Shown here: in pieces, positions 2,745 through 18,474 of the stretch | Numbering within the stretch: the stretch's first letter is position 1 | Layout of the letters: every line of letters begins with the position of its first letter | From: Catellatospora citrea | GTDB lineage: Bacteria > Actinomycetota > Actinomycetes > Mycobacteriales > Micromonosporaceae | NCBI RefSeq assembly: GCF_003610235.1 | Contig: NZ_RAPR01000002.1 | Span: 1 to 64,000, forward strand | DNA length: 64,000 nucleotides | Reading direction: 5' to 3' | Position numbers and translations under genes: made by a program | The notes under the pieces: model-generated | The model's input: the letters and a program-made list of their open reading frames with translations, nothing else | Databases searched by the model: none | Told to the model about the DNA's origin: nothing

Positions 2745-3074
2745 ATGCGCAGAGTACTGGTGATCGGCATCGGCGCCGCCGCGATCGCGGTGGCCGCCAC
2801 CGCCGTGGCGGCGGCATCCGACGACCCCGGTGGCGTGCACCGGCCCAGCCCGTTCCCGTCGCTGTCGGCGCCTGCGCCGTCCACGTCGGACACCCCCGTG
2901 CCGTCGCCGTCGTCCGCGCCTCGTCCCAGCGCATCGGCCGACGACCACGGCGGTCGGGGCAGGGGCAACGACGACGCTCCTGGTGACGACCACGGCGGCC
3001 GCGGCAGGGGAAGCGACGACGCACCCGGCGACGACCACGGCGGCCGCGGCAGGGGATCCGACGACGACCGGTGA
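2745..3074 (+). CDS. small exported protein with Asp/His/Gly/Arg tandem repeats
   Basis: The 109-residue protein has a signal-peptide-like N-terminus (MRRVLVIGIGAAAIAVAATA, cleavage likely after AAA near residue 24). A Ser/Pro-rich linker covers about 33-65. Two full and one partial copies of a 15-residue unit follow (DDHGGRGRGNDDAPG and variants, residues 66-109). The alternating acidic, histidine and arginine residues suggest metal or polyanion binding at the cell surface, but I know no family. The start is supported by GAAGGAG upstream. It follows the kinase by 74 bp and lies behind a candidate response-regulator array, so it is probably an output of that two-component system. Confidence 0.75.
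   Translation: MRRVLVIGIGAAAIAVAATAVAAASDDPGGVHRPSPFPSLSAPAPSTSDTPVPSPSSAPRPSASADDHGGRGRGNDDAPGDDHGGRGRGSDDAPGDDHGGRGRGSDDDR
2940..3071 (+). repeat. 45-bp in-frame tandem repeat, about 2.9 copies
   Basis: Units begin at 2940, 2985 and 3030 and encode the DDHGGRGRG-containing 15-mers. The second and third copies are almost identical in DNA, which indicates recent duplication; the last copy ends in DDDR before the stop. Confidence 0.85.
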
Positions 3075-7660: not shown

Positions 7661-7893
7661 CGGGTCCGCCTTCCTCGCGCGCCTCCCGGAACCGGTCGGC
7701 GCCGGAGGTCGTTGCCGTGACTCGACTCGCCGGACCGCTGTCGCGTCTCCGTGATCGGGGCAGCGACCGGCGCAGATGGTGATCATTTTATGCCTGCCGG
7801 TTCGGTCGGGTGCGGACTTCCGGCAAACCCGCGATGACCGCACCGACCGATCGTGCGGCCCGCACCGGCCGCGCGATCGGTGGGGTTCCGCCC

Positions 7894-8341: not shown

Positions 8342-8449
8342 CCGTACGTCCTGCGGGACCGCGCCCGGCCCGGCGAGCATCTAATATGGAGCCTTCGTCG
8401 GGCCGGGGCCGCTGTGCGCCGACCCGCACAGAGGGGGCGTGAGCGGGAG

Positions 8450-9847
8450 ATGTCCGCCGAGCAACGGCTGCACGCGAGCACGGTCTCGATCGACGTTCCG
8501 AACGGCCATCCGGTCGGGGCGGGCTTCGTGGCCGCGCCCGACCTGGTCTGCACCGCCGCCCACGTGATCACCAAGCTGCTGGCCCGCAGGTCCGCGGAGC
8601 CCGGCGTGGGCACGCAGATCGAGGTCCGGTTCCGGGCCACCGGCACCACCGCCACGGCCGTCGTCGAGGTGTGGCAGCCCGCGCGGGAGGCCGACATCGC
8701 CGTGCTGCGGCTGCAGGCGCCGGTGCCCGAGGGAGTGCGGCCGGTCCGCCTCGTGGACGAGCCCGACGCCTGGGGGCACCACTGCCGGATGTTCGGCTTC
8801 CCGGAACACCACCCGGACGGCGTGTGGGCCGTGGGCACGATGCACGGCCGCCAGGGTTCGGGCTGGCTGCAGATCGACGACGACCGCAACGCCGGCTTCT
8901 GGGCCACGCAGGGTTTCAGCGGCGGCCCCGTCTGGGACGACGACCGCCAGGCCGTGACCGGCATGATCGTCGCGACCGAGGCGCTGGCCGGGCGGCGTAC
9001 GGCCTACGCCCAGCCCGCGTCGGCACTGCTCGCCGTCGCGCCGGGACTGGCCGGCTGGGCCGAGCCGCCGGGCCGGTGGGACGACAGCCCGTTCCGCGGC
9101 CTGGAACCGTTCCGGGAACAGGACGCGCCGCTCTACTTCGGACGCGCCGCCGAGGCCGCCGAGCTGGCCGAGACCGTGTGGCGGGAGCCGTTCACGGTGC
9201 TCAACGGCGCGTCCGGCACCGGCAAGTCGTCGCTGCTGTCGGCCGGGGTCCTGCCACGGCTGCGGGCCCGGCCCGCGGTGATCGTCGGCCTGCGGGTCGC
9301 CGCCGGGGCGAGCGCGGAGAGCGTGCTCACGCGTGCCCTGGCGCAGGCCTTCGACCTGCCCGACGCCACCCCGTCCGAGATCGCCGCCGAGCTGCGCGCG
9401 GGCCGGGTCGGCGACCTGGTCGTCCGGGCCCTCGACCAGGCGTCCGCGCAGCGGCTCGTCATCGTCGTCGACCAGCTGGAGGAGCTGGTCGGTCACGAGC
9501 CCGCGCAGGCCACGGAGCTGTTCACGCTGCTGCGCGCGCTGTGGGGGTCGACCCGCACCGTCCGGGTCATCGTCACGCTGCGCTCCGACTTCCTCGACCA
9601 GGCGGCGGCCCTGTCCGGGCTCGGCTCGGCGTGGACGCACGCGATCACCTACCTGGCCCCGCTGACCGGTGACGCGTTGCGCGAGGCGGTCGAGGGGCCG
9701 CTGGCGGCGGCGGGCCGCACCGCCCGAGCCGCGGCTCGTGGACCGCATCCTCGCCGACGCCGGTGCGACCGCGGGCGCCCTGCCGATGGTGGAGTTCCTG
9801 CTGGAGCGCCTGTGGCGGTCCGAGCCCGGCGACGTGCTCACCCATGA
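8450..9847 (+). CDS. trypsin-like protease plus nSTAND NTPase, 5' part of a frameshifted gene
   Basis: This frame encodes a serine protease domain (about residues 1-205) with an intact triad: H38 in CTAAHV, D82 in EADIAVL, and S157 in GFSGGPV. An nSTAND-type P-loop ATPase follows: FRGLEPF motif, Walker A NGASGTGKSS at 252-261, and Walker B LVIVVDQLEE with D341. The family's remaining NTPase helices continue in another frame from about 9714, and everything after residue 422 or so here is arginine-rich out-of-frame reading. The start ATG 8450 follows GCGGGAG; an in-frame GTG at 8414 is possible. TAATAT at 8382-8387 is a possible -10. No signal peptide is present, so the protease acts inside the cell. 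Trypsin-nSTAND fusions are known from NTP-dependent bacterial conflict systems. Confidence 0.85.
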   Translation: MSAEQRLHASTVSIDVPNGHPVGAGFVAAPDLVCTAAHVITKLLARRSAEPGVGTQIEVRFRATGTTATAVVEVWQPAREADIAVLRLQAPVPEGVRPVRLVDEPDAWGHHCRMFGFPEHHPDGVWAVGTMHGRQGSGWLQIDDDRNAGFWATQGFSGGPVWDDDRQAVTGMIVATEALAGRRTAYAQPASALLAVAPGLAGWAEPPGRWDDSPFRGLEPFREQDAPLYFGRAAEAAELAETVWREPFTVLNGASGTGKSSLLSAGVLPRLRARPAVIVGLRVAAGASAESVLTRALAQAFDLPDATPSEIAAELRAGRVGDLVVRALDQASAQRLVIVVDQLEELVGHEPAQATELFTLLRALWGSTRTVRVIVTLRSDFLDQAAALSGLGSAWTHAITYLAPLTGDALREAVEGPLAAAGRTARAAARGPHPRRRRCDRGRPADGGVPAGAPVAVRARRRAHP

Positions 9848-12557
9848 GACGTACGACGCGCTCGGTGGTGTCGGCGGCGTCATCGCCGGCTACGCCGAGG
9901 AGGTGCTGCGCGAGCGCATCCCGCGAGCCGAGCTGCCCGCCGTGCGGTCGCTGATGCTGCGGTTGGTGCAGCCGACCGCCGCCGGAACCGCGCTGCGCCG
10001 TCCGGTGCGCGCTGAGGACCTGACCTCGCCCATGCTGGCCGTCGCCAGGGAGCTGGCCGCCGCCCGGCTGGTCGTGACGTCGCGGGACCGCGAATCCGGG
10101 GCGGTCACCTACGAGCTGACCCACGACGCGCTGACCCGGCGCTGGCAGCGGCTGGCGGACTGGCTGAAGGAGTCGGCGGAGTTCTGGCAGTGGTACGAGA
10201 GCCTGCGCATCAGCCGCGAGCAGCAGGAGCCGCTGCGCGGCGCGCGCCTGGAGACGGCCCGGAACTGGTTGCGCACCAACGGCGACGATCTCACCCCGGC
10301 CGACCGGGACTTCATCCTGGCCAGCCAGCAGCGCAGCCGCCGGTTCACCTGGGCGTGGCGGTCGGCCGCCGGGGCGCTGGTGGTGCTGCTGCTGGCGACC
10401 GGCGGGTTCGCGGCCCTGCTGCAGGACAGCAACGCAGATCTGGAGGCGCAGCTGCGTGAGGCCAGTGCCCGCGTGCAGGCGGCGGAGGCGACGCGATACC
10501 TGTCGACCGATCCCGACAAGGCGGCGCTGACCGCGCTGACCGCCTACCACAGCATGGCGCTGCCCGAGTCGGCCAGTGCCCTTTTCCAGGTTTATGCGCA
10601 GTTCAACCAGGTCAAGCAGATCCTGCCCGACACCAGCGCCGTGAAGGCCATGGCGGTCATGTCGGACCCGCCCTCGCTGCTGACAGCCGGTGGCGACCTG
10701 CGCCGATGGCGGCTGGACGGCACCGGCCGGCCCGTCTCGGAAAAGCTGGCGGACAGAGCCAAGGGTGTCGTCACCGACCGGTCGGGCACCCGCTTTGCCT
10801 TCATCGGCGCCGACTCGGTGACCGTCGTCCAGCCCGACAAGCGGCTGACCCGCAAGTTCACCAATAAGATCAACCTGGAGCGGTTCGACCCGTCCGGGCA
10901 GGCGCTGCTGCTGCGCGTCCAGCCCCGTCCGGAGGACCCGATCCGGGCCCTGATCTGGGACCTGCGCACCGACACCGACACCGAGCTGCCCCAGGTCGAC
11001 GTGAACGCCGCCTGGTTCGGTCCGGACGCCGGCACCGTGCTCGTCAAACTGGAGTCCGGCGACACCGAGATCTGGGACGTCAAGGCCGGCCGCGCCATCG
11101 AGAAGATCACCGACGACGTGGTGGGCGTCAGCCCCGACGGCAGCCGGGTGGTGCGCTGCCCGAAGTCCACCAGCAGAGCCGCCATGCGCATGTTCGATCT
11201 GCCCGGCCTGCGGCAGGCGGGCGAACTCACCACCTCGTGCCTGGGCGCGTTCGGCAACCAGCTCGGCTTCGACGCCTCCGGCGAGCTCCTGCTGGGGATG
11301 CCCTGGGATGTGAACGCCGCGGGCCGGCAGCGTATCCAGGTCGTGCTGACCGCAACCGGTGAGGCGACCACGCTGGCCGTGCCGCCGCTCGGCACGACCG
11401 ACCTCGCCGACCGGGTCGTGCCCGTCGCCGTGCCGCACGACGGGGGCTGGTTGGTGGCCTACGCCGGTGACGGCGGCGTGGTGCTGGCAGACGTCGCCCG
11501 CAGCCGCCTCACGCAGCTCGGCGCCGACCTGACCGCGTACGACGCGGAACCGGTCGACCTGATCGGCCCGCTAGCCGTCGCCCGGTCGGCACGCCCGGCG
11601 CGGCTGTGGGAGCTGGCGTCCGGCCGCAGGATCACCGGAGGCCTGCCCGAACAGGAGCGGGTGCTGATCGCCGACGACCGCTACCTGTTCACCACGGACG
11701 CCACCCGCACCACGCTGTCGCTGCGCGACCTGGGCGACCCGAGCCAGGTCCGTCACGCGCTGTCCACGCCGCCCAGCCCGGGGCTGTCGCCGTCGTCCGG
11801 CGGGTTCGGGCCGGGCTGGGCGTGCATCGTGCGCACGGACAGCATGCTGGTCCACTTCAACGGCAGCGTGATCCGCCGCTGGGAGTATCCGAGCCTGCGC
11901 CCGCTGGAGCCGGTCACACCGACCCCCGACGACGGCGTCGACCCGCGGTCGCAGACCGGCACCTGCGCGTATGACGCGGACAGGCAACTGCTGGCGGTGA
12001 ACACCACGGGACCGTACATCTCGGTGTGGAACGCCGACACCGGCAAATCTGCGTACGTCGCCACGGTCGACAGGGTGAAAAGCATCCGGCAGATCGCCTT
12101 CGACCAGGGCAGCCACCTCATCGCGGCGCTCGGGGAACGCGGGCAGGTCCAGGTCGTCGACCCGGTCGAGGACACCACCGTGTCGATCGTGACGGCGCCG
12201 CAGAATACGCTGGTCAATGCCTGCTGCCGGATCCAGGCGCTGCACGACGGACTGATCTACCTCCAAAGCGGCGAGCAGTTCCTGGTGTGGAGGATGAGCG
12301 AGGCGACCGTGGGGCTGACCCTCGTGCTGCCCAGGTCCGATGACTTTCAGGGGCTGGAACGCAGCAGCATCGACGATTCCGCCGACACGCTGACGGTCAG
12401 TGGCACGGAGCTCGGGGTGCAGCGGTTCGACCTCGATCCGCAGAAATGGCGGCAGCACCTGTGTGACGTGGTCGGGCGCGGACTGACCGCCGCCGAGCGG
12501 GACGACGCCGCCACCCACCCCGACGACGAAGACATCTGCCCCGGCTGGAGAGGCTGA
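9669..12557 (+). CDS. nSTAND C-terminal part, transmembrane segment and beta-propeller, 3' part of a frameshifted gene
   Basis: Coherent family sequence begins near 9714 (PPEPRLVDRILADAG), the direct continuation of the NTPase in the upstream frame; earlier codons are out-of-frame. It holds the winged-helix end of the nSTAND module (YELTHDALTRRWQRL), one transmembrane helix (about 10345-10430), a short coiled coil (about 10432-10495), and about 650 residues of divergent beta-propeller blades. The blades include SVWNADTGKSAYVATVD and RVVRCPKS. Removing one G in the run at 9711-9714 joins the frames into a protein of about 1,368 residues. This could be a sequencing error, a recent mutation or, less likely, recoding. 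The stop is 1 base before the Trypco1 gene. Confidence 0.85.
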   Translation: MTRCARRSRGRWRRRAAPPEPRLVDRILADAGATAGALPMVEFLLERLWRSEPGDVLTHETYDALGGVGGVIAGYAEEVLRERIPRAELPAVRSLMLRLVQPTAAGTALRRPVRAEDLTSPMLAVARELAAARLVVTSRDRESGAVTYELTHDALTRRWQRLADWLKESAEFWQWYESLRISREQQEPLRGARLETARNWLRTNGDDLTPADRDFILASQQRSRRFTWAWRSAAGALVVLLLATGGFAALLQDSNADLEAQLREASARVQAAEATRYLSTDPDKAALTALTAYHSMALPESASALFQVYAQFNQVKQILPDTSAVKAMAVMSDPPSLLTAGGDLRRWRLDGTGRPVSEKLADRAKGVVTDRSGTRFAFIGADSVTVVQPDKRLTRKFTNKINLERFDPSGQALLLRVQPRPEDPIRALIWDLRTDTDTELPQVDVNAAWFGPDAGTVLVKLESGDTEIWDVKAGRAIEKITDDVVGVSPDGSRVVRCPKSTSRAAMRMFDLPGLRQAGELTTSCLGAFGNQLGFDASGELLLGMPWDVNAAGRQRIQVVLTATGEATTLAVPPLGTTDLADRVVPVAVPHDGGWLVAYAGDGGVVLADVARSRLTQLGADLTAYDAEPVDLIGPLAVARSARPARLWELASGRRITGGLPEQERVLIADDRYLFTTDATRTTLSLRDLGDPSQVRHALSTPPSPGLSPSSGGFGPGWACIVRTDSMLVHFNGSVIRRWEYPSLRPLEPVTPTPDDGVDPRSQTGTCAYDADRQLLAVNTTGPYISVWNADTGKSAYVATVDRVKSIRQIAFDQGSHLIAALGERGQVQVVDPVEDTTVSIVTAPQNTLVNACCRIQALHDGLIYLQSGEQFLVWRMSEATVGLTLVLPRSDDFQGLERSSIDDSADTLTVSGTELGVQRFDLDPQKWRQHLCDVVGRGLTAAERDDAATHPDDEDICPGWRG

Positions 12558-12558
12558 C

Positions 12559-12915
12559 ATGCAACCGCTGATCGAAGTGACCCTGGAGGACGGCACCCGG
12601 CTGCTGGTCGAGCCGAGCGACGGCGAGCGCGACGAGCTGGTCGAGGCCGGGGTGGGCGACCACATCACCACCGCGCGGGACAGCTTCCAGACCATGATGA
12701 GCCGGCTGCGCCCGGTGATCCAGACGGTGACAGACCAGGTCAGCTCGCTGCCGCGGCGGCCGGACAAGTTCACCGTCGAGATCGGCATCAAGATCACGGC
12801 GGAGTCCGGCGTGGTGATCGCCAAGGCCGCCAGCGAGGGCCACCTCACCCTCACCATGGAGTGGTCCGGCCCGGAACGCGGCCCGGTCCCGGGTCAACGG
12901 CAGTCAGGGGAGTGA
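12559..12915 (+). CDS. Trypco1 (CU044_2847-family) protein
   Basis: The 118-residue protein matches the trypsin-co-occurring domain 1 pattern: an N-terminal beta strand pair (PLIEVTLEDGTRLLVEP), a central helix (ARDSFQTMMSRLRPVIQTV), then the conserved FTVEIGIKITAESGVVIAK and a closing strand HLTLTMEW. Known members sit beside, or are fused to, trypsin-like proteases in nSTAND conflict systems, where they are thought to act as substrate, adaptor or effector-associated modules. Its start lies 1 base after the stop of the protease-nSTAND gene, so the two are co-translated. Its own stop overlaps or abuts the start of the ABC ATPase gene. Confidence 0.88.
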   Translation: MQPLIEVTLEDGTRLLVEPSDGERDELVEAGVGDHITTARDSFQTMMSRLRPVIQTVTDQVSSLPRRPDKFTVEIGIKITAESGVVIAKAASEGHLTLTMEWSGPERGPVPGQRQSGE

Positions 12916-12917
12916 CG

Positions 12918-13703
12918 GTGGAGGCGGTGCGACCGCGTGAGGCGGAACCGGCGGCGGCGCTGCGGCTGACCGCCCTGCACAAGGCATTCGGCGACACCCT
13001 CGCCGTCGATCATGTCGACCTGGCCGTGCCGCAGGGCTCGTTCTTCGGCCTGGTCGGGCCCAACGGCGCGGGCAAGACGACGGCGCTGTCGATGGCGGTG
13101 GGCCTGCTGCGACCCGACGGCGGCAGGTCGCAGGTGCTCGGCGTCGACGTCTGGGCGGACCCGGACCGGGCGAAGGCCCTCATGGGCGTGCTGCCCGACG
13201 GGCTCGCCATGCCCGAACGCCTCACCGGCCGGGAGCTGCTGACGTTCCTCGGCCAGCTCCGCGGGATTCCCGACCACGTGCTGACCGGGCGGGTCCAGGA
13301 GCTGCTCGACGTCATGGAGCTCAACGACGCCGAACGCACCCTCGTGGTCGACTACTCCACCGGCATGCGCAAGAAGATCGGACTGGCCACCGCGCTGCTG
13401 CACGGGCCCCGGCTGCTGGTGCTGGACGAGCCGTTCGAGGCGGTCGACCCGGTCTCGGCGGCCGCGCTCAAGTCGATCCTGGTCCGGTTCGTCGCCGCGG
13501 GCGGGTCGGTGATCCTGTCCAGCCACGTCATGGCACTGGTCGAGCAGCTGTGCGACACGGTCGCCGTGATGGCCAAGGGCAGGGTCGTGGCCGCCGGCCC
13601 GCTCGACGCCGTACGCGGCGACGGCACGCTGGAGGAGGCGTTCGTCCGGCTCGTCGGCGTCGACACCGGCGACCGGGAGGGCCTGTCGTGGCTGGCGTCC
13701 TGA
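12918..13703 (+). CDS. ABC transporter ATP-binding protein
   Basis: The 261-residue ATPase has Walker [11 protein letters not shown], a degenerate signature YSTGMRKKIGLATALL, Walker B LLVLDEPFEAVD and the switch histidine in LSSHVM. This is the subtype that works with ABC-2-like permeases. It pairs with the 632-residue permease that follows. I favour GTG 12918 because AGGGGAG ends 5 bases upstream; GTG 12912, overlapping the Trypco1 stop as GTGA, is the alternative. Either way it is translationally coupled to the Trypco1 gene and overlaps the permease gene by 16 bp. The transported substrate is unknown. Confidence 0.92.
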   Translation: MEAVRPREAEPAAALRLTALHKAFGDTLAVDHVDLAVPQGSFFGLVGPNGAGKTTALSMAVGLLRPDGGRSQVLGVDVWADPDRAKALMGVLPDGLAMPERLTGRELLTFLGQLRGIPDHVLTGRVQELLDVMELNDAERTLVVDYSTGMRKKIGLATALLHGPRLLVLDEPFEAVDPVSAAALKSILVRFVAAGGSVILSSHVMALVEQLCDTVAVMAKGRVVAAGPLDAVRGDGTLEEAFVRLVGVDTGDREGLSWLAS

Positions 13704-15586
13704 GCGCACTGCCGGCCGAGGTCCGCATCCTGATCCGGATGAAGGTGGCGATCCTGCGCCACTCCATGACCGGCGGCAAGGCCGCGCTGATGGTCGTCGG
13801 CGGCACCCTCGGGCTCGGGCTCGCGGCCGGCACGATCTGGCTCAGCCTGGTCCGGACCGCCCACCCGACGGTGGTGGCCGATCTGCTCGCCGCCGTCTAC
13901 CTGATGTGGACGCTGGGCTGGGTGGCCGGGCCGGTCTGGGGCGGCTCGTCGCCGCTGCGCGCCGACCACTTCGGGCTGCTGTCCGTGCCGCGGCGGCGGC
14001 TCGCCGTCGGGCTGCTCGGCGCGGCCTTCGTCGCCGTCACCGCCGCGGTGACCCTGCTGGCGTTCCTGAGCCTGCTCGTGTACGCCGCCCGGCTCGGCCC
14101 GGCGGCCGTGCTCGTCGCGGTCCCCGCGGTCGTGCTGCAGCTCGTGTTCGTCGTGCTGCTGTCCCGCGTAGTGGCAGTCGTGTTCGGGGTGGTGGCCAAG
14201 TCACGGACGGGTGCGGCGTTCACCGGTGTGCTCGTCGCCGCGATGATGGTGCTCGCCCAGTCCGGCTGGATGGTCGCCGTCGCGATCCAGGTCTCGGGTG
14301 TGCTCACCACCGGCTTCGGGCCGGGCTTCGCCGGCACGGTGCGAGCCGTGCCGTCCGGCTGGGGCCTGGTCGCGGTCGAGTCGGCCGCCCAGGAGCGGTG
14401 GTGGTGGGCGCTGGGCGCGCTGGCCGGGCTGGCCCTGCTGATCGTGCTGCTGCTGCTCGCGTGGAGCCGCAGCCTCGGCACGCCGCGCCGGGCTCGGACG
14501 ACCATCCGCGGCTCGCGTGGGCTCGCCGCGGCGGGCCGGGGCCTGTTCGCCGGGCGCACCGGCGCCGTGCTGCGCAAGGAACTGCGCACCTGGTGGCGTG
14601 ACCCGCTGCGGACGCAGACGGTCTTCGTGCCGCTCGCCTGGGCGCTCGGCACGACCCTGCTGCCGCTGACGTTCGGCGAGAAGGTGCTGCTGCCGTGGGC
14701 CGCGCCGGCGCTGGCGGTGATGGCCGGCGCGTCCGCGGTCAACCTGTACGGGCAGGACGGCACCGCGCTGTGGCTGACCCTGCTCACCGGCAGCGAGCGG
14801 GCCGACGTGCGCGGACGCCAGCTGGCGTATCTGCTGGTCTTCGGGCCGGTGACGGTCGCGGTCGCGGTGGTGTGCACGGCGTGGAGCGGGCTGGCCTGGG
14901 CGTGGCCCTGGGTGCTCGCCCTCGTGCCGGCGCTGCTCGGCGGCGGGGCCGGGCTGGCCGTGCTCATGTCCGTGGTGGCGCTCGCGCCCGGTCCCGACGC
15001 CCACAAGCGCCCCGAAAACCCCCTCGAACACGGCGACACGACCGGCCAGGCCAACGTCATGTTCTGGGGCGGGCTGCTGCCGGCCGTCCCGGCGGCGACC
15101 GTGCTCGCCCTCGGCACGGTGTACGACAACGCCTTCCTGCTGTGGGCGGGTGTTCCGGTGGGTGTGGCCACCGGCGTCCTGCTGGCGTGGTGGCTCGGCC
15201 GGGTCGCGAGCGGGCGGCTGCGGGCGCGCGGGCCGGAGCTGCTCCTGCTGATGCGCACCGGCCGCAGCAGCAAGCCGGTGGTCCGGATCGAGGTGCCCAA
15301 GCAGGGTGTCTGGACCTCGCTCGTCGGTTGGACGCTTGGCTCGATCGCGCTGTTCCCGCAGGGCCTCGTGCCGCTGGTCTTCCTGCTCGTCGGTGTGGAC
15401 GTGAAGTCCTGGTTCCTGGCGATGTACCTGCCCGGCCCGTACCGGTTGCCGGTCGCGGCCGCGATGGTCCTGGTCGGCAGCTGGCTGTACTACATCGCCA
15501 TCAGGGCGGGCCTGCCGAAGAAGCGCCCGGTCGCACCCGAGGATCCGTCCGGCGAGGACGCGCCCCGGGAACTCGAGTCGGTCTGA
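13688..15586 (+). CDS. large ABC-2-like integral membrane permease
   Basis: The 632-residue hydrophobic protein has about 14 predicted membrane segments in two halves, separated by a basic stretch near residues 270-300 (RRARTTIRGSRG). No solute-binding protein is present, so it is probably an exporter or lipid transporter. GTG 13688 is preceded by GGGAGG inside the end of the ATPase gene, giving a 16-bp overlap. The last 30 residues are charged and cytoplasmic. The gene closes the operon that starts with the trypsin-nSTAND gene, and a bidirectional hairpin follows at 15593. Confidence 0.85.
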   Translation: MAGVLSALPAEVRILIRMKVAILRHSMTGGKAALMVVGGTLGLGLAAGTIWLSLVRTAHPTVVADLLAAVYLMWTLGWVAGPVWGGSSPLRADHFGLLSVPRRRLAVGLLGAAFVAVTAAVTLLAFLSLLVYAARLGPAAVLVAVPAVVLQLVFVVLLSRVVAVVFGVVAKSRTGAAFTGVLVAAMMVLAQSGWMVAVAIQVSGVLTTGFGPGFAGTVRAVPSGWGLVAVESAAQERWWWALGALAGLALLIVLLLLAWSRSLGTPRRARTTIRGSRGLAAAGRGLFAGRTGAVLRKELRTWWRDPLRTQTVFVPLAWALGTTLLPLTFGEKVLLPWAAPALAVMAGASAVNLYGQDGTALWLTLLTGSERADVRGRQLAYLLVFGPVTVAVAVVCTAWSGLAWAWPWVLALVPALLGGGAGLAVLMSVVALAPGPDAHKRPENPLEHGDTTGQANVMFWGGLLPAVPAATVLALGTVYDNAFLLWAGVPVGVATGVLLAWWLGRVASGRLRARGPELLLLMRTGRSSKPVVRIEVPKQGVWTSLVGWTLGSIALFPQGLVPLVFLLVGVDVKSWFLAMYLPGPYRLPVAAAMVLVGSWLYYIAIRAGLPKKRPVAPEDPSGEDAPRELESV

Positions 15587-15592
15587 GCACGG

Positions 15593-15625
15593 CGGCGCTC
15601 CCCGCCCGGGCGGCGGGGAGCGCCG
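15593..15625. terminator. bidirectional hairpin terminator
   Basis: A perfect 14-bp inverted repeat (CGGCGCTCCCCGCC at 15593-15606, complement at 15612-15625) with a 5-base loop sits between the convergent permease and lipase genes and can serve both. Confidence 0.75.
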
Positions 15626-15634
15626 GGTCACCGG

Positions 15635-16309
15635 TCAGGCCGCGATGAAGCCGCGGATCTGGGTCAGCACGCTGGTGTTGGTGAGGAACCCGATGTGGGT
15701 CTCGCACGCCACGTTGGTGTTGGTCGCGCCATCCAGCCGGGTGCTGGTGTACGGGATGATGATGCCGTCGCAGGCCGAGTACCAGGTGCGGTACTTGCCG
15801 GTGCCGGGCGTCTCGTCGCCGTCGGCGAGGTCGAGCAGGAACAGCGAGCCCGGGTACATCTCGATGCACGAGACGTTGATCAGGCACGCGCCGGCGTACG
15901 TGGTGCCGTGGTTGGCGCCGGCGATCGAGGCGACGTGGCTGACGTTGGCCGAGCCGCCCATCTCCTCCAGGTACCAGCGGGTGACCAGGCCGCCCATCGA
16001 GTGGTTGACGATGGCGACCTTCGACGCGCCGGTCTGCGCCTTGACCTGGTTCACCTTGTCGCGCAGCCCGGCCGCGCTGATCTGGTTGGAGCCGGCCCAG
16101 TTGTAGTCGTAGGTGTAGAGGCGGGTGAAGCCGCCGGCCCGGAAGACCGACAGCGCGGTCGTCCAGTTCGACGAGTTGCCGATGAAGCCGTGCACGAAGA
16201 TCACCGGCGTGCTGGTCGCCGCGTTGGCGGGCGAGGACGGGGCGACCACGAGCGCCGCGGCGGCGACCAGGGCCGCGCCGACGGCGATGAGGCGTTGGCG
16301 GATACGCAT
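15635..16309 (-). CDS. secreted lipase/esterase (alpha/beta hydrolase)
   Basis: The 224-residue protein has a cleavable Sec signal peptide (MRIRQRLIAVGAALVAAAAL, likely cut after ANA at residue 30). The mature part starts TPVIFVHGFIGNSSNW, where HG supplies the oxyanion hole. The nucleophile elbow is NHSMGG with S104, and the general-base histidine is probably in ETHIGFL near the C-terminus; an acidic residue lies in DLADGDE. This matches the small secreted class-2 lipases of Streptomyces and relatives that hydrolyse acyl esters. The four cysteines (INVSC, ACL, ACD, ACE) could form two disulfides. ATG 16309 was chosen because the signal peptide begins there. Confidence 0.88.
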   Translation of the reverse strand: MRIRQRLIAVGAALVAAAALVVAPSSPANAATSTPVIFVHGFIGNSSNWTTALSVFRAGGFTRLYTYDYNWAGSNQISAAGLRDKVNQVKAQTGASKVAIVNHSMGGLVTRWYLEEMGGSANVSHVASIAGANHGTTYAGACLINVSCIEMYPGSLFLLDLADGDETPGTGKYRTWYSACDGIIIPYTSTRLDGATNTNVACETHIGFLTNTSVLTQIRGFIAA

Positions 16310-16554
16310 GGGGGAGCCCTCCGTTGGGACGAGATGCGTGGTGCCAACGAGCATCGGAGCAGCGCCCCACCGTCTGCATCGGTGTAATCGCCGGTTCGCC
16401 CGCGGTGCCTGAGATCCACGCACCGCATCGTCAGGTGTCGACGTATATTGATGGCCGGTGGTACGGCGGCCACTTCTCGTTCCCGTGTGTTCGGTTTCGT
16501 TGATTCGAGATGGAACGTGAACGAAGCCGACCCGATCCCCTGATGGGAGAGCCG

Positions 16555-18474
16555 ATGGGCAACCGTCCCCGCCGCATCGCCGCCGTGACCCTGCTCGCCG
16601 CCCTCGCCGGAATGCTCCTCGGCGCGCCCGCGGCCCCGGCCGCGCCGCCCGACTACACCACCAGCGAGGCGGGCAACCCGTTCACCGACGGCTGGTACGC
16701 CGATCCCGACACCGTCGTCTACGGCGACCGCTACTGGGTGTTCCCGACCACATCGAAGAGCTACGCCGAGCAGACCTACCTCGACGCGTTCTCCTCCACC
16801 GACCTCGTCAACTGGACCAAGCACCCCAACGTGCTGACCAAGGCGAACGTCTCCTGGGCGTCGTACGCGATGTGGGCGCCCGCGCCGATCCAGCGCAACG
16901 GGAAGTACTACCTCTACTTCGCCGCCAACGACATCCAGAACAACGCCAGTCTCGGCGGCATCGGCGTGGCCGTGGCGACCCAGCCCCAGGGTCCCTACGC
17001 CGACGCGCTGGGCCGCCCGCTGATCGCCCAGTTCCAGAACGGGGCGCAGCCCATCGACCAGGACGTCTTCATCGACGACGACGGCCAGGCCTACCTGTAC
17101 TACGGCGGCTGGGGACATGCCAACGTGGTCAAGCTGAACGCCGACATGATCAGCCTCGGCACGCACGGCGACGGCACGGTCTACAAGGAGATCACCCCGG
17201 CGGGCTACGTCGAGGGCCCGCAGCTGTTCAAGCGCAACGGCAGGTACTACCTGATGTGGTCGGAAGGCGGCTGGACCGGCCCCGACTACTCCGTCGCGTA
17301 CGCCATCGCGAACTCGCCGCTGGGCCCGTTCACCCGGCTCGGCAAGGTGCTCGCCCAGGACGCGGCCGTGGCCCGGGGCTCGGGGCACAACTCCGTGGTC
17401 AACATTCCCGGCACCGACACCTGGTACATCGTCTACCACCGCCGCCCGCTCAGCGAGACCGACGGCAACCACCGGCAGCTCGCGTACGACCGGATGGTCT
17501 TCAACGCCGACGGCACGATCGCCCCGGTGACGATGCGGGTGCGCGACAACTTCGCCGACAACAACGCGCTGGGCTGGCGCACCTACGGCGGCTCCTGGTC
17601 GGCCACGGGCGGCCGCTACACGGCGGCGAACTCACTCGGCGGCAAGGCGCTGCTGGACACCAACTTCGGCGACGTCACCCACGACGCCGACGTGTCGGTG
17701 ACCTCCGGCGGCGGCGACGCCGGGGTGATCTTCCGGGTCACCAACGCGGGCACCGGCACCGACAGCTACACCGGCTATTACGCGGGCATCAGTCCCGCGG
17801 GCCGCGTCGTGCTCGGCCGGGTCAACAACAACTGGACCCAGCTGCAGGCCACACCCATGACCGTCGCCGTCGGCACCACCTACCGGCTGCGGGTGACCGC
17901 CGTCGGACCCTCCCTCAAGGTGTACGTCGACGACCTGGTCACCCCGAAGATCAGCGTCACGGACGGGACCTACCCGACGGGCGCGACCGGGCTGCGGGTG
18001 TTCAACGCCGCAGCGGCCTTCGACAACGTCGCCGTCGGCCCGCCGGTCGGCGCGGGGACCAACCTGGCGCTGAACCGCCCGGCGACGGGCACCACCGCCT
18101 GCACGGCGTCCGAAGGCCCGGAGAAGGCCGTGAACGGCACCGTCAACGGCGGCAACAGCGACAAGTTCTGCTCCGCCGTGACCGGGGCCTGGCTGCGCGT
18201 CGACCTCGGCGCGACCCGGGCGATCAACCGGTTCGAGGTGGCCCACGCCCAGGCGGGCGGCGAGTCGGCGGCCCTGAACACCAGGGCCTTCACCATCTCG
18301 GTGTCCGCCGACGGCGTGACCTGGACGCAGGCCGTCAACGTCACCGCCAACACCGCGGCCACCAGCACCCACCCGGTGAGCGTCAGCGGCCGCTATGTCC
18401 GCCTGAACGTCGGCACCCCCGCCCAGAACGCCGACCTCGCCACCCGCGTCTACGAACTGCGCGTGTACGGCTGA
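16555..18474 (+). CDS. secreted glycoside hydrolase family 43 enzyme with CBM32-like domain
   Basis: The 639-residue protein has a signal peptide (about 1-29) and a five-bladed GH43 domain (about 38-335). Its motifs are GWYADPDTVV (general-base Asp), SYAMWAPAP, DQDVFIDDDG and GYVEGPQLFKR (acid Glu). A concanavalin-like/LamG-type sandwich follows (about 338-510, FADNNALGWRTYGGSW), then an F5/8 type C (CBM32) domain (about 513-639, NLALNRPATGTTACTASEGP). GH43 enzymes act on arabinan, xylan or galactan side chains outside the cell. ATG 16555 is preceded by GGGAG at good spacing; ATG 16510 and 16543 lack this. A hairpin follows at 18527. Confidence 0.92.
   Translation: MGNRPRRIAAVTLLAALAGMLLGAPAAPAAPPDYTTSEAGNPFTDGWYADPDTVVYGDRYWVFPTTSKSYAEQTYLDAFSSTDLVNWTKHPNVLTKANVSWASYAMWAPAPIQRNGKYYLYFAANDIQNNASLGGIGVAVATQPQGPYADALGRPLIAQFQNGAQPIDQDVFIDDDGQAYLYYGGWGHANVVKLNADMISLGTHGDGTVYKEITPAGYVEGPQLFKRNGRYYLMWSEGGWTGPDYSVAYAIANSPLGPFTRLGKVLAQDAAVARGSGHNSVVNIPGTDTWYIVYHRRPLSETDGNHRQLAYDRMVFNADGTIAPVTMRVRDNFADNNALGWRTYGGSWSATGGRYTAANSLGGKALLDTNFGDVTHDADVSVTSGGGDAGVIFRVTNAGTGTDSYTGYYAGISPAGRVVLGRVNNNWTQLQATPMTVAVGTTYRLRVTAVGPSLKVYVDDLVTPKISVTDGTYPTGATGLRVFNAAAAFDNVAVGPPVGAGTNLALNRPATGTTACTASEGPEKAVNGTVNGGNSDKFCSAVTGAWLRVDLGATRAINRFEVAHAQAGGESAALNTRAFTISVSADGVTWTQAVNVTANTAATSTHPVSVSGRYVRLNVGTPAQNADLATRVYELRVYG

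What the first reader, a model, noticed from the sequence alone, without database searches (positions are those of the whole stretch)
8450..15586. Trypsin-nSTAND-propeller / Trypco1 module coupled to an ABC exporter
An intracellular trypsin-like protease with intact triad is fused to an nSTAND NTPase, one membrane helix and a long beta-propeller. One base further a Trypco1-type protein follows, then an ATPase and a 632-residue permease joined by overlapping starts and stops. Trypsin-nSTAND with Trypco1 is a known composition of NTP-dependent conflict systems in multicellular bacteria; the tight coupling to an ABC exporter is what I have not seen described. The exporter could deliver a signal or effector, or simply share the operon.
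Basis: partly seen in the sequence, partly recalled or inferred. Interest (0 to 1): 0.75.

Follow-up and report, generated by a model that had tools for sequence, protein, structure and literature searches.

The report
Bacterial receptor with swappable sensor
A soil bacterium carries a membrane receptor whose inner protease-and-switch half stays almost constant between species while its outer sensing half is exchanged between old versions, as in self/non-self or immune receptors; the transporter genes beside it look like an optional addition.

Summary
The genes exist as described: trypsin, nSTAND1, one membrane helix, beta-propeller, Trypco1, ABC ATPase, permease. But the first gene is two overlapping frames here: the window has one base more than four relatives, where it is one open frame.

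The ABC coupling is not a feature of the system. Trypsin-nSTAND-Trypco1 occurs in 5 of 11 Catellatospora genomes; the ABC pair follows in 3 of those 5. Of 40 other Trypco1 loci, 0 have an ABC ATPase within 1.5 kb downstream; of 23 other close ABC homologues in a class-wide sample, 0 have Trypco1 within 1.5 kb.

The better finding is the receptor. Trypsin-nSTAND is 88-98% identical among seven Catellatospora alleles. The propeller behind the helix falls into classes 55-64% alike that disagree with the tree of the rest: C. aurea and strain NPDC049111 are 98.3% identical before the helix and 57.5% after. dS between classes is two to four times the cytosolic value; in the one within-class pair measured it is about equal. 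Ten of 20 comparable pairs outside the genus (five protein groups) drop likewise.

Best reading: an NLR-like membrane receptor with an exchangeable exported sensor; function untested.

The parts
8450..9847 (+). Trypsin-like protease (His in TAAHV from 8552, Asp in ADIAVLRL from 8690, Ser in GFSGGPV from 8912) and first half of the nSTAND1 NTPase (Walker A from 9206, Walker B from 9455); this frame ends at 9847
9669..12557 (+). Second frame of the same gene: rest of nSTAND1, membrane helix, propeller region; one open frame with the first part in four relatives
10344..10415 (+). Single membrane helix (FTWAWRSAAGALVVLLLATGGFAA), Arg-rich on the N side; the identity break between alleles begins here
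   Evidence: helix by hydrophobicity and reading of the sequence
10416..12554 (+). Variable ectodomain: helical start, WD40-type propeller region (probably two propellers), eight cysteines invariant in 7 of 7 alleles, conserved C-terminal cap
12559..12915 (+). Trypco1 (trypsin-co-occurring domain 1), 118 aa
12912..13703 (+). ABC ATPase; start GTG at 12912 or 12918; optional, missing at the same site in two of five species
13688..15586 (+). 632-aa ABC-2 type permease; optional together with the ATPase
15594..15624 (+). 13-bp perfect stem with 5-base loop at the operon end; a like hairpin follows Trypco1 directly in C. methionotrophica and the deletion remnant in G003
   Evidence: read directly from the sequence; no terminator scan or folding was run

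Best explanation
A two-gene, membrane-anchored, NLR-like recognition system. A cytosolic trypsin and nSTAND1 switch are joined through one helix to an exported beta-propeller sensor that binds an outside ligand (a phage part, a rival's protein or a neighbour's surface). Binding would drive nSTAND1 assembly and switch on the trypsin, with Trypco1 as adaptor or first substrate, leading to arrest or death of the cell. The sensor is kept as several old allele classes that move between lineages as a whole domain behind a constant cytosolic half. The ABC pair is an optional passenger or accessory between Trypco1 and the operon-end hairpin. Shown: domain make-up, constant/variable split, conflict between sensor class and the rest of the locus, older divergence of the classes, optional ABC pair. 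Inferred: topology (from charge and cysteines), ligand sensing, activation order, outcome.
For: Seven alleles: cytosolic part 88.3-98.3% identical; ectodomain 55.0-63.8% between classes (paridis, 63.5-63.8% to coxensis and aurea, counted apart) and 76.8-84.9% within them; C. aurea vs NPDC049111 98.3% then 57.5%, best change point at residue 638, the start of the helix-like segment. Trees: the ectodomain joins window + methionotrophica (DNA) and window + NPDC049111 + methionotrophica (protein) at 100/100 and rejects window + paridis (AU p 4e-66, DNA) and aurea + NPDC049111 (p 2e-80, protein); the cytosolic part rejects window + methionotrophica (p 0.027, DNA) and the three class-A alleles together (p 4e-9, protein); Trypco1 and the downstream gene reject window + methionotrophica too (p 0.014, 0.039). 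Pairwise ML dS: between classes 1.69-3.11 against 0.58-0.97 for the cytosolic half of the same pairs; within class A (window-methionotrophica, the only such pair) 0.88 against 0.81. No second match to the nSTAND-propeller part in the own genome at E 1e-5. Two flanking control genes show no such step. Same break in a second Catellatospora receptor family (about 76% to 47%, one pair) and in 10 of 20 comparable pairs outside the genus. Topology: more Arg/Lys on the N side of the helix in 115 of 117 family members, even ectodomain cysteine count in 101 of 117. Trypsin and Walker motifs intact in 6 of 6 relatives. The ectodomain model resembles tandem WD40 proteins, the Apaf-1 apoptosome among the top Foldseek hits.
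Against: No functional data of any kind. Codon site models find no positively selected sites in the ectodomain (M1a/M2a p 1.0; M7/M8 p 0.49); the higher NG86 dN/dS is, I think, inflated by third-position GC. Only seven alleles, one per strain, so a balanced polymorphism inside one population is not shown. C-out topology is a prediction; cysteine density is hardly higher in the ectodomain (median 0.53 against 0.45 per 100 residues), and the authors of PMC7159879 (passages) see no secretion features in the systems they describe. The model is of modest confidence (mean pLDDT 58.8) and its Foldseek TM-scores are low (0.17-0.36). A third family shows a milder step (about 90% to 75-80%); of the 20 outside pairs 5 show hardly any drop and 5 an intermediate one, and the 20 are not independent (19 proteins). 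The cytosolic DNA tree is weak (window + paridis 74/79) and does not reject window + coxensis or window + vulcania. In the window the gene is frameshifted, so it may be inactive there.
Confidence: 0.55

Rival explanations
1. One reading: trypsin-nSTAND/Trypco1 and the ABC exporter are one functional unit, the exporter delivering a signal or effector.
For: Overlapping starts and stops, and the pair lies inside the operon before the end hairpin in three species.
Against: Clean absence in C. coxensis and C. methionotrophica; 0 of 40 other Trypco1 loci; 23 of 24 class-wide ABC homologues without Trypco1 within 1.5 kb; the pair does not follow the sensor class (class A occurs with it in the window and without it in methionotrophica).
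Confidence: 0.08
2. The ectodomain simply evolves fast under weak constraint; no exchange of alleles.
For: Omega is about three times higher in the propeller (0.16 against 0.051); no sites under positive selection.
Against: Topology conflict (AU p 2e-80 and 4e-9 in the protein trees); 98.3% to 57.5% step within one pair; dS about equal in the within-class pair but two to four times higher between classes.
Confidence: 0.1
3. The receptor is a nutrient or cell-envelope sensor whose exported propeller adapts to niche; exchange reflects niche change, not recognition of an enemy or neighbour.
For: nSTAND1-helix-propeller proteins named SARP regulators or class 3 adenylate cyclases by their sources show the same break, so the pattern is not tied to a killing effector.
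Against: Several old classes kept in parallel in close relatives, patchy presence (5 of 11) and outright deletion (G003) fit recognition or immunity better (inference); trypsin is a usual component of the conflict systems described in PMC7159879 (passages).
Confidence: 0.22
4. In the window's own strain the system is a dead gene: the frameshift has separated the trypsin and first nSTAND half from the sensor. (Compatible with the best explanation for the family.)
For: One base more than four relatives between 8450 and 9741; the database lists a separate 939-aa product; G003 shows outright loss of the module with about 20 codons left.
Against: Both frames are otherwise open and as conserved as in relatives; a single-base assembly error would look the same.
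Confidence: 0.5

Closest known systems
Trypsin/Trypco1 conflict systems of multicellular bacteria (Kaur et al., PMC7159879; passages seen)
   Same: Trypsin-like peptidase with a neighbouring Trypco1 gene and an NTPase switch
   Different: There Trypco1 is described beside VMAP ternary systems, without secretion features; here nSTAND1 takes that place, and the sensor is a propeller behind a membrane helix, exchanged between alleles
nSTAND1 NTPases with diverse N-terminal effectors (PMC8195603; 12 of 36 places seen)
   Same: nSTAND1 domain with exchangeable effector
   Different: The passages seen concern EAD, Death-like, TRADD-N and FGS contexts; no allele classes of an exported propeller are described in them
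DGR-diversified antigen sensors (PMC10907252; passages seen)
   Same: STAND or vWA conflict protein with a diversified C-terminal sensor
   Different: The only RVT_1 match in this genome is on another contig; no C-lectin domain was found; variation is by whole-domain classes, not point hypermutation
TraA receptor of Myxococcus (PMC6372800, PMC3820747; search listing with starts of abstracts)
   Same: Polymorphic bacterial surface receptor with a variable domain governing recognition types
   Different: No trypsin, STAND or propeller; works by TraA-TraA binding and outer-membrane exchange
Fungal NLR / het WD40 proteins (PMC12222747, PMC1805685; search listing with starts of abstracts)
   Same: NTPase-switch receptors with polymorphic WD40 sensors in allorecognition
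   Different: Fungal and intracellular; variation there through highly alike internal repeats (title of PMC12222747; detail recalled). No repeat search was run here
PknD-type receptors: kinase, helix, extracellular propeller (search listing; architecture recalled)
   Same: Cytosolic enzyme, one helix, exported beta-propeller sensor
   Different: Kinase instead of trypsin-nSTAND1

Membership tests
Trypsin/Trypco1 conflict system | Trypsin-like domain with intact catalytic motifs | tested here: met
Trypsin/Trypco1 conflict system | Adjacent Trypco1 gene over the curated cut-off | tested here: met
   (88.6 bits, cut-off 24.6)
Trypsin/Trypco1 conflict system | MoxR / vWA / VMAP partner genes (for the ternary subtype) | tested here: not met
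   none among the ten neighbouring frames scanned with Pfam; nSTAND1 stands in their place
Trypsin/Trypco1 conflict system | Anti-invader function | not testable with these tools
   needs challenge assays
nSTAND1 NTPases | PF20703 match over cut-off with Walker motifs | tested here: met
AVAST type 1 (Avs1b) | NCBIfam NF041810 over its cut-off | tested here: not met
   30.7 bits against 1500, residues 16-132 of the trypsin part only
DGR-diversified sensor | Reverse transcriptase near the target | tested here: not met
   only RVT_1 hit in the genome is on contig C1, the window is on C2
Polymorphic recognition receptor (TraA-like in behaviour) | Variable sensor with discrete classes on a constant body | tested here: met
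   (seven alleles)
Polymorphic recognition receptor (TraA-like in behaviour) | Class decides recognition | not testable with these tools
   needs strain mixing or sensor swaps
ABC-2 exporter | ABC ATPase plus membrane permease of ABC-2 type | tested here: met
   (permease named through relatives; it has no Pfam match itself)
Receptor with exported sensor | N-in / C-out topology | tested here: inconclusive
   charge rule 115 of 117, even cysteine count 101 of 117, eight invariant cysteines in 7 of 7 alleles; cysteine density hardly differs; no experiment

The most novel reading that the evidence does not exclude
Across actinobacteria, nSTAND1 proteins with one membrane helix form a family of NLR-like surface receptors in which a constant intracellular body (protease, cyclase or transcription-factor effector plus STAND switch) is combined with whole-domain-exchanged, balanced alleles of an exported propeller, giving these mycelial bacteria polymorphic non-self or kin recognition without a diversity-generating retroelement.
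Probability: 0.35. Interest if true: 0.85.

Novelty: new variant of a known kind. Interest (0 to 1): 0.62.

Why it matters
If the exported propeller is a recognition domain kept as exchangeable classes, bacteria would have a membrane counterpart of plant, animal and fungal NLR polymorphism built on a STAND switch, and natural allele pairs (the receptors of C. aurea and NPDC049111 differ almost only in the sensor) would be ready-made swap experiments for finding the ligand. It also shows that a striking operon neighbour, here an ABC exporter, can be an optional insertion.

Tried and rejected
ABC coupling as a system: rejected by synteny and by surveys in both directions. Positive selection at single sites: tested with my own M0/M1a/M2a/M7/M8 code on five alleles, not found. 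Point hypermutation by a DGR: no reverse transcriptase on the window's contig. Paralogous donor of the sensor in the own genome: no second match at E 1e-5. Avs1: not met. Structure of the ectodomain: modest confidence, so variable sites were not mapped on it; no solved structure matches P0006 by sequence at E 0.001, and the four matches of Trypco1 have E 0.27 or worse. RNA families at gathering score and tRNAs: none in the window. Literature: searches listed no paper on exchange of a propeller ectodomain in nSTAND1 proteins; one search listed only 20 of 757 papers, and subscription papers and preprints are not in the library.

Limits of the counts. The 40 other Trypco1 loci are 37 of the 49 non-module places (weak and contig-end matches among those left out; those kept reach E 5.7e-4) and the 3 other places. 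ABC was sought there by tblastn with the window's ATPase at E 1e-8. The family set is the best 120 listed of 458 matches, from a database clustered at 90%, so pairs alike in both halves are under-represented; 5 of 122 proteins without a helix-like segment were left out, and the pair count asked for coverage of 0.9 in both halves. The 10 outside pairs with a drop of 25 points or more come from five protein groups. In one search the Trypco1 profile was built from 38 of 44 loci (6 dropped for stops or short length) plus the window's own. Of the 21 ABC places in the genus, the 10 with short loci were scanned, 3 positive (window, G010, G006); five longer loci (L049-L053), three of them over places already among the 10, were negative.
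Full report
What is there. The window is from a Catellatospora genome (9.33 Mb, 4 contigs; the genus follows from the named near relatives). Searches confirm trypsin, nSTAND1, Trypco1, ABC ATPase and a membrane permease in the order given. The first gene is not one frame: trypsin and the first nSTAND half lie in one frame (to 9847), the rest in another (9666 on). Four relatives carry the same protein as a single open frame, and the window has one base more than they do between 8450 and 9741. Both window frames are otherwise as conserved as in relatives, so this is either a recent lesion or an assembly error.

The ABC pair. At the same chromosomal site C. paridis and C. vulcania have the pair directly after Trypco1 (L035, L038); C. 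coxensis and C. methionotrophica do not (L036, L037). In methionotrophica the alignment passes from window position 12917 to 15590 with no base between, and the operon-end hairpin follows the Trypco1 stop. On the unrooted tree of the downstream gene the three species with the pair stand on one side of a branch (92/92), so one gain or loss would do; the trees of the cytosolic part and of Trypco1 do not show that grouping and would ask for two events. Around 40 other Trypco1 loci, nearly all of the same family, a relative of this trypsin lies within 5 kb in 26, an nSTAND1 half as well in 11, an ABC ATPase anywhere in about 16 kb in 3 (upstream or on the other strand), and an ABC ATPase within 1.5 kb downstream in 0. 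In the other direction, 24 close ATPase homologues in 20 of 394 genomes of the class include one beside Trypco1, the window's own. The permease has 609 relatives at E 1e-20 or better among the candidates scored. Some in other genera (Microtetraspora 76%, Planotetraspora 74-75%) are as near as the copies of other Catellatospora outside this operon (62% in C. sichuanensis and C. tritici, 77% in Catellatospora sp. TT07R-123); a 95% copy in C. citrea has a context I did not see. My reading is a travelling two-gene cassette that entered this operon; loss from two species is the alternative.

Presence of the module. It is found in 5 of 11 Catellatospora genomes. In G003 the flanks are conserved and about 20 codons of the start of the trypsin gene remain, joined straight to the hairpin: a deletion remnant. 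In five further genomes only the downstream GH43 gene of this neighbourhood was recognised in the stretches fetched; two of these stretches, in G002 and G009, run to a contig end.

The sensor. Sliding comparisons of the Catellatospora alleles show a sharp fall in identity at the membrane helix in every pair except those of one sensor class, where it is slight. With C. aurea and strain NPDC049111 added there are seven alleles: class A (window, NPDC049111, methionotrophica), class B (coxensis, aurea), paridis (nearest to B, 64%) and vulcania. C. aurea and NPDC049111 are 98.3% identical over trypsin-nSTAND and 57.5% over the ectodomain. DNA trees of the cytosolic part, Trypco1 and the downstream gene pair the window with paridis (support only 74/79, 84/85, 80/90) and reject pairing with methionotrophica at p 0.027, 0.014 and 0.039; the propeller tree pairs it with methionotrophica at 100/100. 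Protein trees of seven alleles conflict strongly in both directions. The exchange ends before Trypco1, whose tree follows the cytosolic half. ML dS between classes is 1.69-3.11 against 0.58-0.97 for the cytosolic half; for window and methionotrophica it is 0.88 against 0.81. So the classes are old and travel as units; site models find no positively selected codons. Two control genes beside the module show no such step: GH43 windows lie at 78-100%, the oxidoreductase at 74-100% apart from the ragged start of its partial alignment.

Generality. A second trypsin-nSTAND family of the genus (L064, L070) shows the same break (about 76% to 47%), a third (L065, L100, L101) a milder one. In the best-scoring members of the wider nSTAND1 family, 20 pairs outside Catellatospora are at least 85% identical before the helix with good coverage: 10 drop by 25 points or more, 5 by 8-25, 5 by less than 8. 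They come from few groups and are not independent; they include trypsin, cyclase and SARP-type N-terminal domains. Of six such pairs with a large drop that I traced, four have their change point 18-31 residues after the start of the helix-like segment; in P0166/P0171 the segment taken as helix (891) and the change point (675) disagree, and in P0198/P0200 the single change point fell on a difference at the N terminus. Two less similar pairs break 167 residues after and 52 before it.

Topology and fold. Arg/Lys excess lies on the N side of the helix in 115 of 117 family members, and the ectodomain cysteine count is even in 101 of 117, though cysteine density is about the same on both sides. Eight cysteines are invariant in the seven Catellatospora ectodomains although up to 45% of residues differ, and only two lie before the helix. 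This fits an exported, disulfide-braced domain but does not prove it. The AlphaFold model (mean pLDDT 58.8) is mostly beta after a helical start, and Foldseek places it with tandem WD40 proteins, a repetitive propeller (2ymu) and the apoptosome (5juy) first, at low TM-scores.

Mechanism. Most likely an outside ligand is bound by the propeller, the STAND switch assembles and the trypsin is activated, with Trypco1 as partner; the outcome is probably arrest or death, as proposed for related systems (PMC7159879, passages). Old sensor classes shared across species, patchy presence and loss fit an arms race or self/non-self recognition. All of the function is inference.

Novelty. The parts are known; the constant-body/exchanged-ectodomain evolution of membrane nSTAND1 receptors was not found in the searches. 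TraA (PMC6372800, listing) is the nearest bacterial precedent I saw for behaviour, DGR-diversified sensors (PMC10907252, passages) the nearest for purpose.

Noticed in passing
window 9700-9741: A one-base length difference from four relatives splits the trypsin-nSTAND gene into two frames.
   Followed up: partly
L054 (G003), about 2900-3050, minus strand: Deletion remnant: about 20 codons of the start of the trypsin gene joined to the operon-end hairpin; next to it a 380-aa open frame that I did not identify (one search failed).
   Followed up: partly
window 7831-7848 and 8343-8450: Insertion hotspot upstream of the module: about 1.3 kb in C. paridis and C. coxensis with an HEVGHSVGLDHD metalloprotease-like frame; related sequence of 1.5-1.9 kb in C. 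methionotrophica and G003 with a hemolysin-III-like frame (both labels recalled from motifs, not from a call).
   Followed up: no
L064 and L070: Second trypsin-nSTAND receptor family with a divergently placed Trypco1 and the same identity break at the membrane helix.
   Followed up: yes
P0190, P0191, P0194, P0196, P0204; P0213, P0228, P0232: Groups whose members are named class 3 adenylate cyclase / WD40 and SARP / WD40 by a source: ectodomain identity is either near that of the N half (75-95%) or about 40-44%.
   Followed up: partly
G000 C1:3148812-3149333: Single reverse-transcriptase (RVT_1) match in the genome, on another contig; not examined for a DGR or a group II intron.
   Followed up: no
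L060, L061, L062 (G000 C1): Three further Trypco1-family genes in the own genome without a recognisable relative of this trypsin-nSTAND within about 8 kb.
   Followed up: partly
window 15638-16423 (-), 16510-18471 (+): Downstream lipase-like and GH43 genes, in aligned order in the four relatives and G003.
   Followed up: partly
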